Origin: Deltaproteobacteria bacterium
GTDB taxonomy: Bacteria; Bdellovibrionota_B; Oligoflexia; Oligoflexales; Bog-1112
DNA: 64,000 nt
Direction: 5' to 3'
NCBI GenBank assembly: GCA_016186945.1
Contig: JACPKR010000013.1
Coordinates: forward strand, 30,351 to 94,350
In this document: piece after piece, positions 57,719 to 64,000 of the stretch
Numbering within the stretch: the first letter of the stretch is position 1
How the letters are laid out: each line of letters begins with the position of its first letter
Made by a program: the position numbers and the translations under genes
The notes under the pieces: model-generated
Told to the model about the DNA's origin: nothing
What the model saw: only the letters and a program-made list of their open reading frames with translations
The model's database searches: none

Positions 57719-59053
57719 GTGATTTTGTTGACAAAAAGTAAAGGAAACTTTTTCGCTTTTGTATTTTTTTTAACAAATTTCCCTTCATGTGCCTCTCTTG
57801 GGATTCTAAACGCACAAGAGTCCGGTTACAAAACGCTTAAAATCATAACTTTCGGAGATAGCGGAACGGGGACTGAAACTCAAATGACTGTTGCCCGTTC
57901 AATGAGGCGAATCTGCGCCAAATTCGGGTGCGAGGTAGGTGTCATGTTGGGGGATAATTTCTACGAAAACGGAGTAGGACATGTCGATGACAAACAGTTC
58001 TTAGACAAGTTTGAGGGCCCCTACGGTCCACTTCAGATTCCTTTTTACGTTGTTCTCGGCAACCATGATGATCGTGGGGATACACAAGCGCAGATAGAGT
58101 ACACACAACGCTCCAGATGGTGGAAAATGCCAGCTCGATACTATGACGTTATTATCGGAGACGTCCATCTAATCGCATTAGACACCAACGATTTTGACCA
58201 AAACCAGCAACGTTTCGTTGCTGACAAATTGAAAAGCTCCTCAGCTCGGTGGAAGGTTGTTTTTGGTCATCATCCGATTCATTCTTATGGGAGCCACGGG
58301 GATACTGGCAGTCTAGTTGACAAGCTCCTTTCTCTTCTATGTGAACATGGTTCACTTTATTTGTCCGGCCACGACCATGATTTGCAAGTTATGCAGTCGG
58401 ATTGTGGACTGCCTTTAATTGTTTCCGGCGCGGCAGCAAAACTTCGATCTACGAAAATGGGCAAACGCAGCCTGTTCGCGCAAAGCACTTACGGCTATAC
58501 GGTATTGGAGTTTAAAAAAGACTCCTTCGACATGTTTATCCATTCTTCTGACGATTCTTTGCTCTACCAGAATTCATTTGCCAGACGTGGTAATGATCCC
58601 AATCATAGCACCTACTACAAACCAATCGCCAGCTCCCTGGAAGCCTCTTGCAACCCTGGTGAAGCCATCAACGGTTTCAAGTACAAAAACTCAGGCGACG
58701 ACCACGTTCTGGGCATGTTCTGCCAGCAGTCATTCAACGAAGCTGACATCCGTCATAAAGACTATGTCGCGGTGGCGAACCTGTTTGGATTCGAGTATGA
58801 TGTGTCGTGTCCACATGATAATCAAATTGTCATCGGCGCTCGTTATAACCCCTCTGGCGACGAACACCTGGAAGGTTTTTACTGCGTCGATCGCACGGCC
58901 CCGCCTACAAACAAGAAGCCCTATTTCCAAAGTCTGAAAGGAATCCAGGACCTCGAGTTTGACATCTCATGCAAATTCAATACGGAGTCTGTTGTAGGCG
59001 TACGTTTCGATGACTGGAGCGACAAACACATTGAGGGTGTATATTGTCAGTAA
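57719..59053 (+). CDS. Secreted purple-acid-phosphatase-like enzyme with three cysteine repeats
   Basis: The GTG at 57719 follows a GGAG by eight bases and opens with a signal sequence (NFFAFVFFLTNFPSCASL). The catalytic domain belongs to the metallophosphoesterase superfamily. The order FGDSGTG, LGDNFYENGVG, VVLGNHDDRG, RWWKMPARYYD, FGHHPIHSYG, LSGHDHDLQ matches tartrate-resistant acid phosphatases and supplies all metal ligands. After about residue 300 come three repeats of roughly 28 residues, each with two Cys 24-25 residues apart and a GxxYxxSGDxHxxGxxC-like pattern. The repeats' role is unknown; they could bind substrate or a surface. Confidence 0.85.
   Translation: MILLTKSKGNFFAFVFFLTNFPSCASLGILNAQESGYKTLKIITFGDSGTGTETQMTVARSMRRICAKFGCEVGVMLGDNFYENGVGHVDDKQFLDKFEGPYGPLQIPFYVVLGNHDDRGDTQAQIEYTQRSRWWKMPARYYDVIIGDVHLIALDTNDFDQNQQRFVADKLKSSSARWKVVFGHHPIHSYGSHGDTGSLVDKLLSLLCEHGSLYLSGHDHDLQVMQSDCGLPLIVSGAAAKLRSTKMGKRSLFAQSTYGYTVLEFKKDSFDMFIHSSDDSLLYQNSFARRGNDPNHSTYYKPIASSLEASCNPGEAINGFKYKNSGDDHVLGMFCQQSFNEADIRHKDYVAVANLFGFEYDVSCPHDNQIVIGARYNPSGDEHLEGFYCVDRTAPPTNKKPYFQSLKGIQDLEFDISCKFNTESVVGVRFDDWSDKHIEGVYCQ
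58643..59050 (+). repeat. Three tandem cysteine-pair repeats in the phosphatase C-terminus
   Basis: The units start near 58643, 58802 and 58964, 53-54 codons apart. Each has Cys, a variable part with Ile/Val-x-Gly, then Asp/Ser-x-x-His-x-x-Gly and a second Cys (CNPGEAINGF...LGMFC; CPHDNQIVIG...LEGFYC; CKFNTESVVG...IEGVYC). The even spacing and shared pattern show internal duplication. They may form disulfide-bonded modules. Confidence 0.8.
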
Positions 59054-59148: not shown

Positions 59149-59225
59149 GGCGAGATAGCTCAGTTGGTGAGAGCGCTGGATTCATAACCCAGAGGTCGAG
59201 AGTTCGAGTCTCTCTCTCGCTACCA
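59149..59225 (+). tRNA. tRNA-Met (anticodon CAT), island insertion site
   Basis: The 77-base sequence folds as a tRNA: acceptor GGCGAGA/TCTCGCT, D-arm GCTC...GAGC, anticodon loop TTCATAA and T-arm GAGAG/CTCTC with TTCGAGT loop, ending in an encoded CCA. The anticodon CAT means elongator Met, or Ile if lysidine-modified; I cannot decide between them. The last anticodon-stem pair is A-C. Foreign-looking genes begin four bases downstream, so its 3' end is a likely integration site. Confidence 0.9.
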
Positions 59226-59228
59226 AAT

Positions 59229-60023
59229 TTACGAGGGGCGACGGTTCCCTCTCCCCTCAGGCTCACTCTCCCTTAGAAGGGAATCCTTAAAAAAATTTGA
59301 AATCCGTTCCTTGATTGTTTCAAACACGTTTTCAAATCCCTCTTGATCAACTCTTGCTTTTAAGTCCGTTAATTTTATTTGATTTGAACCATCATCAAGG
59401 AATTCGATGGCTGGAAATTGATTACCAGATCCTCTATCTGCATCGTTAACAAATATGGCTAAATAATCATAATCTTTGTCATATTGCACTTCCCCGTTTT
59501 CTTGTAAAAGAGATCTCAAAAAATTTTTCAATGAACTTGCAAAATCTTCCTCTGGAAACATTAGGCGGCCTGCTCTGAAATAGGAGGGGGTAATATCTGA
59601 ATCGAAATAGTATTCGTTCATTTTTTTGCGAATAAAAATCCTCCAAAAAGACTTTAAAAGAAGGTTTTCTAGTCCGTCTTTGGGGTGCTTTTTAGTTAAG
59701 CACTCTTGTATTAATCCGTATTTTATAACTCTGCCTCGAAAATTAACTTCCTCTACCTTTAACCAATCCTCCAAGTCTGCAGGGTTTTCATTATTAGTGA
59801 ACTCTGCTTCGTTGGAGTAAAAATATTCTTCCAAAACATCAAAGTGATCAGTAATGAATTTCCTAACCTCCTGTCTCTCTGAATTGTTGCATGCGATCAT
59901 AATTGAACGCCTTGTTGTTAATTCAACATTTTCGTATTTATTAACAAAAAACTCTGCGATTGGGGGCCCAATATTAACTTTATTCAGGTCCTTCCATAAT
60001 TCAGAAAGGTAAGGTCTTTTCAT
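59229..60023 (-). CDS. Unknown protein paired with AbiGi-like gene
   Basis: This 264-residue protein is AT-rich in codon use and acidic in the middle. I recognise no motif. The stretch FRGRVIKYGLIQECLTKK and the later YDYLAIFVNDADRGSG stand out, but no nucleotidyltransferase, nuclease or P-loop signature is visible. Its ATG overlaps the upstream AbiGi-like gene by four bases, so the two are one operon. The stop codon lies only four bases from the tRNA 3' end, so the reading frame may have been trimmed by integration. Context suggests a toxin/effector or accessory of an abortive-infection system. Confidence 0.6.
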   Translation of the reverse strand: MKRPYLSELWKDLNKVNIGPPIAEFFVNKYENVELTTRRSIMIACNNSERQEVRKFITDHFDVLEEYFYSNEAEFTNNENPADLEDWLKVEEVNFRGRVIKYGLIQECLTKKHPKDGLENLLLKSFWRIFIRKKMNEYYFDSDITPSYFRAGRLMFPEEDFASSLKNFLRSLLQENGEVQYDKDYDYLAIFVNDADRGSGNQFPAIEFLDDGSNQIKLTDLKARVDQEGFENVFETIKERISNFFKDSLLRESEPEGRGNRRPS

Positions 60024-60754
60024 TGTTGTCCCTCTTGCCCAAAAATGTCACTTGCTACAATCAAGCCAACATGTGATTGCATCAAGTTGTTTAGGTTTTC
60101 TGATTCGATCGGAATATCCCTGTTAGGTAATAGGAGGAAAGCAATGTCCCAAAAATTAAGGCGAATTTCCTTAAACCCTCGCCACTCTCTTTCCTCATAA
60201 ATTTGATCAAATGATTCAGTATTTCTATTTTCTTTAGTTTTGGGAAACAAGGTCGGAACCTTAACATAGTTTCCCAATTCTGTCGCGTCATCTCTACGCG
60301 TCCAAAGGGCTTGTTGGGTTGTTAGGAATTCATGTGGATCGTTTACTGGGTAGTAAAGTACAGGGCGAATTCCAAATTCAACAAAACGATTGATCACCTC
60401 GTTTTTTCTCAGTCCAATGCCGATCGACCCATATCTATTCATATGCCCGCCAAGTTGGTTGAAAGGAATGTCACAAAAGCAAAGCGCACGAGGCTCAACA
60501 ATATCAACGAGTGGGAAATTTGCATTTGGTTCGCCCATTTCAGATGCTGATAAGGAATCTCCGCAAGGTAAACTAAATTGGCGCCTATGAGGCTCGTCTG
60601 TATGCGGTTTCAAAACTAAGACAGACCTGTCAACAGTCCCTTCAAAAAACGTTTCCAATCGCTGAAGGGACCTCTTTATCGATTCATTGTTCTTTGGTCC
60701 TATAAAATGCCACAAAATATTTGAGACATGATCAATATTTTTGTACGTAGTCAT
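60020..60754 (-). CDS. AbiGi-like abortive-infection family protein
   Basis: This 244-residue protein resembles the AbiGi family (putative antitoxin of the lactococcal AbiG phage-resistance system). Features are an early LWHFIGPKN, the core RALCFCDIPFNQLGG, then RYGSIGIGLRKNEVI and GIRPVLYY, and a late EEREWRGFKEIRL. The identification is from memory of the motif pattern, without a search. In AbiG systems the partner is AbiGii; the protein encoded next to it here does not show AbiGii-type nucleotidyltransferase residues. It is the first gene of a two-gene AT-rich cassette transcribed toward the tRNA. Confidence 0.6.
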   Translation of the reverse strand: MTTYKNIDHVSNILWHFIGPKNNESIKRSLQRLETFFEGTVDRSVLVLKPHTDEPHRRQFSLPCGDSLSASEMGEPNANFPLVDIVEPRALCFCDIPFNQLGGHMNRYGSIGIGLRKNEVINRFVEFGIRPVLYYPVNDPHEFLTTQQALWTRRDDATELGNYVKVPTLFPKTKENRNTESFDQIYEEREWRGFKEIRLNFWDIAFLLLPNRDIPIESENLNNLMQSHVGLIVASDIFGQEGQQ

Positions 60755-60885: not shown

Positions 60886-61821
60886 TCAAAACCCCAACAC
60901 CTCGGTCTTCCCCCGCAGATGATCGGGTACAAAGTGGGTATACCTCTCCGTCACCTGGACGGTGGAATGCCCCAGAAGCTTTTGCAGGTCGTAGATACTC
61001 CCCCCACCCATCAGAAAATTCGAGGCAAAGGTGTGGCGAAGGTCATGGAAGCGAATCTCTTTGACCCCGGCTTCACGCGACATACGTCTGAAGATTTTCA
61101 AGAAGGAATCAGGATGACAGGCCGGAACCACATAGCCAGACGATCCGGTTAGTTCTTTTAAGCGCACTAGGTGGACCTGGAGGGAAGAGTTGATAGGAAC
61201 TCGTCGAATCGTGCCGCTCTTGGTCTGGTTCCGCACCATCTTTGCTGCTTTGCAATAGGAGCATTTGACGGTGATGAATCCCGAGGAGAAATCCACAGCA
61301 TCCCACTGGAGACCCAGTATCTCACCACGCCGCATCCCCGTATAGAGAGCAAGCATCACTGCCCAAAACATCTTGGGGGTGTGCCTGCGGGTCTGCCAAT
61401 ACCCAAGGAACAACTGGACCTCCGTTTTATTCCAAAATGCCATGTCACGCTCCGGCAGAGGCATCTTTCTAATGAAGATCAGTGGGTTTTGCTGGATAAA
61501 TCCCCAACGGGTAGCATCGTTCAGGAGCTTCCTGAACAGCACCAGCACGTCGTTGCACGACTTTGCCGACAGGCCAGAATCTTTCACAAGGTTGAGAAAC
61601 CAAAATTCGACGTTTCTCCCAGTTATTTCACCCAGAGGACAAATGCCATAAGCGGGCAGGATGTACTTTTTAAGCGTGATCTTGTCGCGGGCAATAGACG
61701 AGGGCGCCTTGCGAGCCTTCGCGTAGAAGGTCATCCAATAGACTGCCAGCTCTCCGACATTTGCCGGGGTCCAATTGTCCACTAACCGGGGGTCCAGAAT
61801 CGGAATTAGGGCGTTAGACAT
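60886..61821 (-). CDS. Tyrosine recombinase (integrase) of the island
   Basis: The 311-residue enzyme has an N-terminal SAM-like core-binding domain (about residues 20-110) and a C-terminal catalytic domain. The catalytic residues are visible: Arg in YTGMRRGEILGLQWD, His and Arg in IRFHDLRHTFASN, His in LLGHSTVQVTERY and the Tyr nucleophile in the same segment. The ATG at 61821 is preferred over an upstream one because GGAGG lies six bases before it. It overlaps the stop of the upstream replication gene by eight bases, so the two are coupled. It probably recombined the island into the tRNA. Confidence 0.92.
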   Translation of the reverse strand: MSNALIPILDPRLVDNWTPANVGELAVYWMTFYAKARKAPSSIARDKITLKKYILPAYGICPLGEITGRNVEFWFLNLVKDSGLSAKSCNDVLVLFRKLLNDATRWGFIQQNPLIFIRKMPLPERDMAFWNKTEVQLFLGYWQTRRHTPKMFWAVMLALYTGMRRGEILGLQWDAVDFSSGFITVKCSYCKAAKMVRNQTKSGTIRRVPINSSLQVHLVRLKELTGSSGYVVPACHPDSFLKIFRRMSREAGVKEIRFHDLRHTFASNFLMGGGSIYDLQKLLGHSTVQVTERYTHFVPDHLRGKTEVLGF

Positions 61822-63853
61822 GCTTGCCTCCGCTCTTTCCCCCAACAGGGATGGACGGATTAATGCGAATTACTTCGGATGGTCCTCCCTTTGTTTGCAC
61901 CTTTTGGAGCCGGACCCAGTTTTTCTGAGTCAGGCAATCCATCGCGTCCTGGATTCTTTCGGAGGAGTTAAGCCCTTTCCAGTTCTTGCGCCCAATTTCT
62001 CTGACTCGATCCCCATCGCAGATATCGAAATTCTTGATTTTTGCCGCTAGGGCTCTGGCACTAAAAAAATGATCGTGGATGGAGTTGTCGTATACTTTTA
62101 GGGTATGGGACTCTAATATCCGGCACCAGCGAATTGCTAGACGTACAAAAGGTTCTTCAACCTCTAAAGGGATTGCATGGTGGTGGGCGCCGTGCAAAAT
62201 GGAAAATAGAAGGGCCAAGCTTGGCAGTAGAGACCGATACTTACTGACGTGAGACCGAAAAATAGGTGCTATATTTTCATTGATAATCCGCATTTCCAGT
62301 TCGATACGCCACTGATCCGCGACTTTTTGCGCTTCCTGAGAAAAACGTAAGTAGGAACCATTGCTTACATTACCAGTTAGATTGTCCAAAAATGACAAGC
62401 ATTCAAAAGCTGTGTCAAAGGCCCCTGCTAGGGGTTTACGATCGATTAACTCAAACGTTTTTGGTCGCTCAGGATAGAACACGATCTGAAAACGCTCTAG
62501 AAAGCCATCATCACCAGCTGCGGTTGAGGTTCTATCGATGTAGCTTTCCAGTTTCGCAGGCTGAATTCCTCCAAAAACCGACAAACACAAAGCGTCCACA
62601 TGGACCGAGCCTCGACCAATACGGTCGACGGAGAACGAACCTTGCCCGTTCCATGTCTCCAGATAGAACTCCTTGCTTCCCTCCCGACCAGAACGGGTCA
62701 ATGAGTCAAGCCAACCGCTTAGCTCATCTCGCAGGAGGAGGACTCCTTGGGGATTGTCTTTGAGGATCAGGGCAAGCTTTTCCACCGTCGGGTCATTGGT
62801 TTTATATCGCTTTTCAGGGATCTCCTTGTGTTTGGAATCGAGGTGTTCGAGTTCATCCAGGCGACGCTGTTTTTCTTCCATTGCGTCCAGAAAGTCGCTG
62901 CGGAGGTCGACTTTGAGGGCTTGGCGGATGCCCTCAATCTCACTACGCCTTTTCCGTTGTTCTTCTTGGGTGGTGACGCAGGCTTTCTCAAACTTTTGGA
63001 GTTCCCCTTTCTCGATGATTTCCAGTGGTTTCATAGCTGCGGCTATTGCTGGAGATTTCATCGCTCCAGGTTCAGCGACCAGGAACCCCCAAAGATTTGG
63101 GACGACGGTCCAATCATCGTTTTGAAGAGGCCTGATCCCCATTTTGCGACCTACCAAGGTAGCCACTGATATCAAAGCTGGAGCTGCCACAAACTCGATG
63201 GGAATCTGCATCCGAGTGGCAATATCAGTTAGCCACGGAGCAAGACAGGCTGGAAGATCATCCGGAAGAAGAGGTTCGGATGTCGTTTTTGACTCAGGCA
63301 ATTCTTCTGGTTCACCCCAAGGCTGCCCGTGGTCGTATCGACTGAGGCTTTTCACGACTTGTCGGACTTCCTGTTCCGCTAGAGGAGGATCGAAAGATGT
63401 ATTTGATACCGTGAGCAGTATTTTTTCGAGCGAGGCTTGGGCAATGCCCCGTGCTTTGAGAAACCCTCCGATACTAATAAGGGTGTTATTGCGCCCACTC
63501 TCTGAAATCAAGCCATTCTGAGGGGTGACTTTGTCGGTTGAGGAATCGCGTAAAACTAAATCAAATAGCCATGAAGGGAGGAGGGCGATGTCTTCCGATT
63601 CATTCTGCCACTGGTACTGTTCTCCAGATATGTGCACGCTAGGTGGTGATACCACATAACCACCTTCACCGCGAAAATCGACCCCAGCAAGGATTCCCGT
63701 GCGATTTCTCAGGTTCCCCCCTGGATGTCTGAAATAGATGTGCATTCCTCCACCGCCTGTGCTAACCCGTTTGCTGCTTGGCAGACGCCCATGACGTGTC
63801 TCAAGCGTCTGTAGCGAGGAATAGCCGTTGTGTTTACGAAAAACGAATTGCAT
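61814..63853 (-). CDS. Primase/DUF3987 replication protein, N-terminus missing
   Basis: The 679-residue frame begins in the middle of a primase-polymerase domain: YSSLQTLETRHGRLPSSKRV, STGGGGMHIYFRHPGG, VDFRGEGGYVVSPPSVH. The N-terminal third with the catalytic DxD motif is absent; an in-frame TAA sits two codons before the ATG. A PriCT-like helical region follows (about 115-175), then a DUF3987 domain with the P-loop-like EPGAMKSPAIAAAM and the Walker-B-like LLLRDELSGWLDSL. The joint near 63840 changes from a normal to an AT-richer sequence upstream, so the gene was likely cut by rearrangement. The rest is intact. Confidence 0.75.
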   Translation of the reverse strand: MQFVFRKHNGYSSLQTLETRHGRLPSSKRVSTGGGGMHIYFRHPGGNLRNRTGILAGVDFRGEGGYVVSPPSVHISGEQYQWQNESEDIALLPSWLFDLVLRDSSTDKVTPQNGLISESGRNNTLISIGGFLKARGIAQASLEKILLTVSNTSFDPPLAEQEVRQVVKSLSRYDHGQPWGEPEELPESKTTSEPLLPDDLPACLAPWLTDIATRMQIPIEFVAAPALISVATLVGRKMGIRPLQNDDWTVVPNLWGFLVAEPGAMKSPAIAAAMKPLEIIEKGELQKFEKACVTTQEEQRKRRSEIEGIRQALKVDLRSDFLDAMEEKQRRLDELEHLDSKHKEIPEKRYKTNDPTVEKLALILKDNPQGVLLLRDELSGWLDSLTRSGREGSKEFYLETWNGQGSFSVDRIGRGSVHVDALCLSVFGGIQPAKLESYIDRTSTAAGDDGFLERFQIVFYPERPKTFELIDRKPLAGAFDTAFECLSFLDNLTGNVSNGSYLRFSQEAQKVADQWRIELEMRIINENIAPIFRSHVSKYRSLLPSLALLFSILHGAHHHAIPLEVEEPFVRLAIRWCRILESHTLKVYDNSIHDHFFSARALAAKIKNFDICDGDRVREIGRKNWKGLNSSERIQDAMDCLTQKNWVRLQKVQTKGGPSEVIRINPSIPVGGKSGGKHV

Positions 63854-64000
63854 CGGGAATTACTCACTGATGTTACGCACCCTGCAGTTTTTGTAGCTGA
63901 AAATAAGCCTGCTGAGTTGCTGTAAGCAACAGTTTTACCCTCAAAGCAAAATGATTCATCTTGTGTTTTATTTTCAGGCATTCGAGTTTAAAAACAGCGC

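What the first reader, a model, noticed from the sequence alone, without database searches (positions are those of the whole stretch)
59229..60754. Two-gene AbiGi-like cassette between tRNA and integrase
A first gene with AbiGi-type motifs overlaps a second gene that I cannot assign. The pair has about 35% GC against roughly 50-55% around it, and sits between a tRNA gene and a tyrosine integrase. The second gene does not look like AbiGii, so this may be a new abortive-infection pair, or AbiGi paired with a different effector. This is the best candidate for an undescribed defence system in the window.
Basis: partly seen in the sequence, partly recalled or inferred. Interest (0 to 1): 0.75.

Follow-up and report, generated by a model that had tools for sequence, protein, structure and literature searches.

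The report
ART-like AbiGi gene with orphan partner
A small mobile DNA element inserted in a bacterial tRNA gene carries a two-gene cassette whose first protein, of a family labelled an 'antitoxin', is predicted to fold like an ADP-ribosylating enzyme, while its second protein resembles nothing known; a second predicted phage-defence pair sits at the element's other end.

Summary
In detail: two overlapping, AT-rich genes lie between tRNA-Met and a tyrosine integrase. Gene 1 (60020-60754, minus) has a PF10899 (AbiGi) domain; gene 2 (59229-60023, minus) matches no family and no homologue was found in any collection searched. The pair is cargo of a ~7 kb element bounded by an exact 48-bp repeat of the tRNA 3' half. 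The contig breaks at an inserted IS, and the element's far end carries the predicted defence pair PDC-M56A/B, which supports a defence role.

The label 'AbiGi antitoxin' should not be carried over. The gene 1 model matches ADP-ribosyltransferase (ART) folds, DarT first. Among 73 PF10899 proteins P131, Y134, E190, W191 and R192 are essentially invariant. H16, in a DarT-like 'HFT..L..IL..G' motif, is kept in 66; the seven without it form one clade that contains all four AbiGii-paired members. The window protein keeps every motif and lies outside that clade. Most PF10899 genes stand alone.

Best reading: an ART-type enzyme translationally coupled to an unrelated lineage-specific partner, probably a phage-defence module. 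The fold is moderately supported; activity, toxicity and gene 2's role are untested. New variant of a known kind; no recurring new system was shown.

The parts
60020..60754 (-). Gene 1: 244-aa PF10899 (AbiGi-domain) protein, predicted ART-like fold; keeps H16, P131, Y134, E188, E190, W191, R192
   Evidence: Pfam E=1.7e-11, PADLOC AbiGi E=7e-11, model and fold matches, residue conservation
59229..60023 (-). Gene 2: 264-aa orphan protein, start codon overlaps gene 1 by 4 bp, stop 3 bp inside the attL repeat
   Evidence: ORF and shuffles; no family match; no homologue
59149..59225 (+). tRNA-Met (CAT), integration site, left intact
   Evidence: ARAGORN
59179..59226 (+). attL core: exact 48-bp direct repeat of G000 contig C11 positions 2526-2573 (attR)
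60886..61845 (-). Tyrosine integrase of the element
   Evidence: PF00589 E=6.8e-26
61814..63853 (-). Primase-polymerase / DUF3987 replication protein, N-terminus of Prim-Pol missing
   Evidence: PF13148 E=9.2e-71, PF09250 from profile position 67; in-frame stop upstream
63867..64000 (.). One end of an inserted IS (14-bp terminal inverted repeat, 7-bp target duplication TTACTCA shared with the start of contig C11); the contig stops inside it

Best explanation
Gene 1 is an ADP-ribosyltransferase-fold enzyme of the broad PF10899 family, and gene 2 is a translationally coupled, lineage-specific partner. Together they are cargo at the attL end of a compact tRNA-Met-integrated mobile element that carries a second predicted defence pair at its other end. 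Most likely working: gene 2 controls gene 1 (restrains it until infection, or couples it to a trigger), and gene 1, once active, uses NAD+ to modify a nucleic acid or protein needed for phage growth. Shown here: operon structure, PF10899 domain, element boundaries, second defence pair, conservation of the H, Y and E motifs. Inferred from a moderate-confidence model: the ART fold. Inferred only: NAD+ use, target, defence activity, gene 2's role.
For: AF2 model built from 31 homologues (mean pLDDT 66, core blocks 84-91, pTM 0.67). The six best Foldseek PDB hits are all DarT (best 7yk3_C, E=2.9e-3, prob 0.94). All 14 entries that VIA-align lists at Z>=2 are ART-fold proteins: Tpt1 Z 8.6 (108 aligned, 3.1 A), DarT 6.0-7.3 (116-143 aligned, 3.4-4.4 A), then ART toxins and effectors. 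P131 and Y134 are invariant in 73 sequences and E190, W191, R192 in all with a letter there; H16 in 66 of 73. This also holds in the 26 not selected on the EREWR pattern. hhalign places AbiGi 'LfHFTgr..d.L..IL..G' on DarT 'l.HiT..Nlp.I...G' (P=0.0078; five controls 0.41-0.56); in DarT1 this His (H17) binds the NAD+ ribose and the catalytic Glu is E152 (E160 in DarT2) (PMC11543638). 48-bp att repeat, IS join, PDC-M56A E=4.6e-122 and PDC-M56B E=1e-21 at the other end.
Against: No Foldseek E below 1e-3, global TM only 0.33, and the tool warns that Z below about 8 can be a common arrangement. No Pfam ART family matches; the best neighbouring hint is one member to DUF2971 at E=0.067. The hhalign match covers 22 columns, and gene 2 against the same profile gave P=0.029, so it is only suggestive. 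Gene 2 has no homologue and no usable model (pLDDT 38), so its role is a guess. Solitary PF10899 genes in core-like positions fit poorly with a toxin needing a dedicated antitoxin.
Confidence: 0.45

Rival explanations
1. Classical AbiG-like abortive infection: gene 1 is the antitoxin or sensor and gene 2 an unrecognised effector taking AbiGii's place.
For: Same order (AbiGi first), tight overlap, and AbiGi-AbiGii pairs with 1-7 bp spacing exist (L005, L010, L014, L087). Pfam labels PF10899 'antitoxin'.
Against: Gene 1 lies outside the AbiGii-paired clade (99/94 support) and keeps the histidine which that clade lost. The NCBIfam AbiGI equivalog scores 16.8 against a cut-off of 300. Gene 2 has no similarity to AbiGii. 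The 'antitoxin' label lacks support: neither lactococcal AbiGi nor AbiGii was toxic in E. coli (PMC3985639).
Confidence: 0.2
2. Gene 1 acts alone, as most PF10899 genes appear to; gene 2 is an independent or decaying cargo ORF that merely overlaps it.
For: Of 86 PF10899 loci only 8 have a same-strand ORF within 30 bp downstream. Gene 2 has no homologue and ends 3 bp after the att core, so it could be a junction product.
Against: A 264-codon ORF, a 4-bp ATGA overlap with a ribosome-binding-like site and shared low GC point to a real coupled gene.
Confidence: 0.2
3. Not defence: an element-maintenance (addiction) toxin-antitoxin pair that stabilises the integrated element.
For: Location at the very end of an integrative element; two-gene overlapping order; ART toxins are common in toxin-antitoxin pairs (DarTG, PMC11543638; CmdTAC, PMC11618068).
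Against: Gene 2 lacks any recognised antitoxin domain; the element also carries PDC-M56, a defence-associated pair. The two readings are not exclusive.
Confidence: 0.15

Closest known systems
AbiG (AbiGi/AbiGii) of Lactococcus, PF10899 + PF16873
   Same: PF10899 domain in the first gene; two-gene overlapping order
   Different: No AbiGii; gene 1 far outside the AbiGii-paired clade; keeps the H16 motif which that clade lost; NCBIfam AbiGI cut-off not reached
DarT of DarTG (ssDNA ADP-ribosyltransferase toxin), PF14487
   Same: Predicted fold (top Foldseek hits), N-terminal H motif, Glu near the C-terminal end of the core; toxin-first two-gene order (DarTG order from general knowledge)
   Different: No PF14487 match; no macrodomain or NADAR in gene 2; EREWR instead of QAEFLV
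CmdTAC (mRNA ADP-ribosyltransferase phage-defence system, PMC11618068)
   Same: Precedent for an ART as the phage-defence effector with an unrelated protein antitoxin
   Different: Three genes with a SecB-like chaperone; no sequence relation was tested
Stand-alone PF10899 proteins (e.g. beside cysS in Desulfarculaceae, L027, L043, L045)
   Same: Same half of the family tree as gene 1 and the same intact motifs
   Different: Solitary, in core-like neighbourhoods, no mobile element seen in the stretch examined

Membership tests
PF10899 (AbiGi domain) | Curated Pfam score | tested here: met
   44.9 bits against 22.4; PADLOC AbiGi E=7e-11
AbiG system (AbiGi/AbiGii) | AbiGI equivalog score (NF042957) | tested here: not met
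   16.8 bits against 300
AbiG system (AbiGi/AbiGii) | AbiGii partner (PF16873) | tested here: not met
   no Pfam match; hhalign P=0.58, control level
AbiG system (AbiGi/AbiGii) | Gene 1 groups with AbiGii-paired AbiGi | tested here: not met
   no-H clade, support 99/94, holds all four AbiGii-paired members; the window protein lies on the other side of a 100/100 branch, though its own branch is long
AbiG system (AbiGi/AbiGii) | Phage restriction | not testable with these tools
   needs an experiment
ART superfamily | ART fold | tested here: inconclusive
   every VIA match is an ART, Z up to 8.6; Foldseek best E=2.9e-3; moderate-confidence model
ART superfamily | Conserved H, Y and E motif residues | tested here: met
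   H16, Y134, E190 present; conserved 66/73, 73/73 and 72 of 72 with a letter; placement in an active site not verified
ART superfamily | NAD+-dependent transfer activity | not testable with these tools
   needs biochemistry
DarTG | PF14487 match in gene 1 | tested here: not met
   no PF14487 hit up to E=10 in any of 31 members
DarTG | Macrodomain or NADAR antitoxin as gene 2 | tested here: not met
   no Pfam or NCBIfam match in gene 2
tRNA-integrated mobile element | Integrase and direct repeat of the tRNA end | tested here: met
   PF00589; exact 48-bp repeat
Phage satellite | Dependence on a helper phage, packaging or hijacking genes | not testable with these tools
   only integrase, primase and HTH were seen; no packaging gene

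The most novel reading that the evidence does not exclude
PF10899 proteins that keep the H-Y-E motifs are a large, unrecognised class of ADP-ribosyltransferases, the AbiGii-paired 'antitoxin' branch being a derivative with an altered site; the window pair is a new two-gene ART defence system with a partner of unknown fold.
Probability: 0.3. Interest if true: 0.72.

Novelty: new variant of a known kind. Interest (0 to 1): 0.5.

Why it matters
How AbiG works has stayed open, and its first component is annotated as an antitoxin. If the AbiGi family has the ART fold, with the active-site histidine kept everywhere except in the AbiGii-paired branch, the annotation is misleading for most members and a simple test follows: NAD+ turnover by intact members, and loss of function on H or E mutation. 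The window adds a distant member with an unrelated coupled partner inside a very small mobile element loaded with predicted defence genes.

Tried and rejected
Gene 2 homologues: tblastn in phages and plasmids (the only phage hits were E about 0.9 to an RNA-phage polymerase, taken as chance), genome contigs, viral contigs with the whole protein and three overlapping pieces, all 58 genomes of its own phylum, seven genomes with PF10899, 158 genomes of the phylum of L045, and every ORF of all loci by phmmer (best E 0.03 to a 66-aa reading frame, taken as chance). All negative, but the collection scans rely on exact short peptide patterns, so distant relatives would be missed. The weak phrog_14705 match (E=0.003, 51 residues) was followed by searching that segment in phages: nothing below E=1, so dropped. 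The structure of gene 2 from its single sequence was useless (pLDDT 38) and was not searched. The AbiGi profile against PDB sequences found no relative. The empty site could not be shown: the tRNA-Met genes of seven relatives have other flanks. The promoter and terminator scan found no more than chance. A HEPN-like R-x5-H in gene 2 (RKFITDH) was considered and rejected as too weak. Gene 2 as a decayed AbiGii was rejected. No paper in the open library was found to link AbiGi to ADP-ribosylation; the original AbiG papers are not held.

Full report
1. Observation. The two genes exist where stated. Gene 1 (60020-60754, minus, 244 aa) and gene 2 (59229-60023, minus, 264 aa) overlap by 4 bp (ATGA), with an AGAGGG upstream of gene 2's start. 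In 1000 dinucleotide shuffles of the segment the longest ORF was 209 aa. The flanks are tRNA-Met and a tyrosine integrase.

2. Families. Gene 1 matches PF10899 (44.9 bits, cut-off 22.4) and PADLOC AbiGi, but the NCBIfam AbiGI equivalog gives only 16.8 bits against 300. Gene 2 matches nothing in Pfam, NCBIfam or PADLOC; a PHROG match (E=0.003 over 51 residues) could not be followed up in phages.

3. Setting. A 48-bp exact copy of the tRNA 3' half lies on another contig of the same genome (window 59179-59226 = C11 2526-2573): attL and attR. The window's contig ends at 64000 inside an IS. Its end at 63867 and the end at position 134 of C11 share a 14-bp terminal inverted repeat and are flanked by the same 7-bp target duplication TTACTCA, so one IS copy joins the two contigs; the helix-turn-helix gene reads through that junction. 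Without the IS the element is about 7.0 kb: attL - gene 2 - gene 1 - integrase - Prim-Pol/DUF3987 - HTH - PDC-M56A - PDC-M56B - attR. The join is inferred from sequence, not from reads. PDC-M56A and B are PADLOC candidate-defence families (E=4.6e-122 and 1e-21). Relatives in the family have one tRNA-Met each with unrelated flanks, and none of the other 57 genomes of the phylum has gene 2; one has a different PF10899 gene.

4. What PF10899 proteins are. I collected 86 loci from plasmids, viral contigs, species genomes and family searches. Only 8 have a same-strand ORF within 30 bp downstream: four AbiGii-type (L005, L010, L014, L087), one large protein of unknown family (L008), the same Bacteroidales locus twice (L054, L091), one acetyltransferase-like (L081). 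Shedu (PF14082) follows at larger distance in rhizobial plasmid L006 (85 bp). In Desulfarculaceae the gene repeatedly follows what reads as cysteinyl-tRNA synthetase (identified by eye from sequence). In L011 it follows a phage head-morphogenesis gene (same basis). So the family is mostly solitary, and its tie to AbiGii is a minority case.

5. Fold. The gene 1 model (31 sequences, pLDDT 66, pTM 0.67, core blocks 84-91) has DarT as its six best Foldseek hits (best E=2.9e-3). In the second look every entry with Z>=2 is an ART-fold protein, from Tpt1 (Z 8.6, 108 residues, 3.1 A) and DarT (6.0-7.3) down to ART toxins. Viral-library matches are weak but include a DarT and a phage minor capsid protein. 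By itself this is not conclusive.

6. Residues. In 73 distinct sequences P131 and Y134 never vary, and E190, W191 and R192 are present in every one that has a letter there; E188 in 71; H16 in 66. The 26 found by the Pfam profile alone, not through the EREWR pattern, show the same. The first motif, S..LfHFT.....L..IL..G, resembles DarT's YHIT..NL..II..G; hhalign aligns exactly these (P=0.0078 against 0.41-0.56 for five unrelated profiles), though gene 2 against the AbiGi profile reaches 0.029, so the statistic is weak. In DarT1 that histidine contacts the NAD+ ribose and the catalytic glutamate is E152, E160 in DarT2 (PMC11543638).

7. A split in the family. The seven sequences lacking H16 (N, R or T instead) form one clade (support 99/94, one change on the tree, none of 500 shuffles as low) and include all four AbiGii-paired members. 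L012 is cut by its contig end; L064 and L084 show no AbiGii within the stretch held. None of the 66 H-bearing sequences is next to AbiGii. Gene 1 lies in the other half of the tree behind a 100/100 branch, on a very long branch of its own (2.8), so its exact place is unsure. The lactococcal-pair label 'antitoxin' therefore does not transfer to gene 1; in fact neither lactococcal AbiGi nor AbiGii was toxic in E. coli (PMC3985639).

8. Gene 2. No homologue in phages, plasmids, viral contigs, 84,980 species genomes (pattern-based), its own phylum, 165 further genomes, or beside any PF10899 gene. No usable model. It is not AbiGii and shows no macrodomain. Its role is open.

9. Mechanism. Best reading: gene 1 is an ART-type enzyme; gene 2, made by coupled translation, controls it; the pair acts in phage defence or element stability. 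CmdTAC is a precedent for an ART defence effector held by an unrelated antitoxin (PMC11618068). Shown: gene structure, domain, element, motif conservation. Inferred: fold. Guess: trigger, target, direction of control.

10. Verdict. A real, coherent cassette of a known domain family with an unknown partner: a new variant. The more interesting outcome is the hint that PF10899 is an ART-fold family whose AbiGii-paired branch lost a conserved histidine. As a recurring new defence system the pair remains unproven.

Noticed in passing
L059 (G000:C11) 149-2450: Far end of the same element: HTH gene followed by PDC-M56A (AAA ATPase, 403 aa) and PDC-M56B (150 aa), just before attR.
   Followed up: yes
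window 63867-64000 and L059 1-134: Ends of an IS with 14-bp terminal repeat CTGATGTTACGCAC and 7-bp target duplication TTACTCA, inserted in the element's HTH gene; it explains the contig break.
   Followed up: yes
window 61814-63853: The Prim-Pol domain of the replication protein lacks about its first 66 profile positions, with an in-frame stop upstream, apparently before the IS arrived: the element may be defective.
   Followed up: partly
L005, L010, L012, L014, L064, L084, L087: The AbiGi branch that contains all AbiGii-paired members has lost the conserved histidine kept by all 66 other sequences.
   Followed up: yes
L027 3986-4705, L043 1978-2697, L045 3941-4663: A solitary PF10899 gene sits directly after a gene that reads as cysteinyl-tRNA synthetase in several Desulfarculaceae-type genomes; the best VIA match of the fold is tRNA 2'-phosphotransferase.
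   Followed up: no
L011 4971-5741: A phage contig carries a PF10899 protein overlapping the end of a head-morphogenesis-like gene.
   Followed up: no
L006 3743-5726, L031: PF10899 gene upstream of a Shedu nuclease gene in Rhizobium and Neorhizobium; L008 and L030 pair it with a large protein without a Pfam match.
   Followed up: partly
window 57719-59053: Metallophosphoesterase with three C-terminal repeats of the type GEAINGFKYKNSGDDHVLGMFC, left of the tRNA.
   Followed up: no
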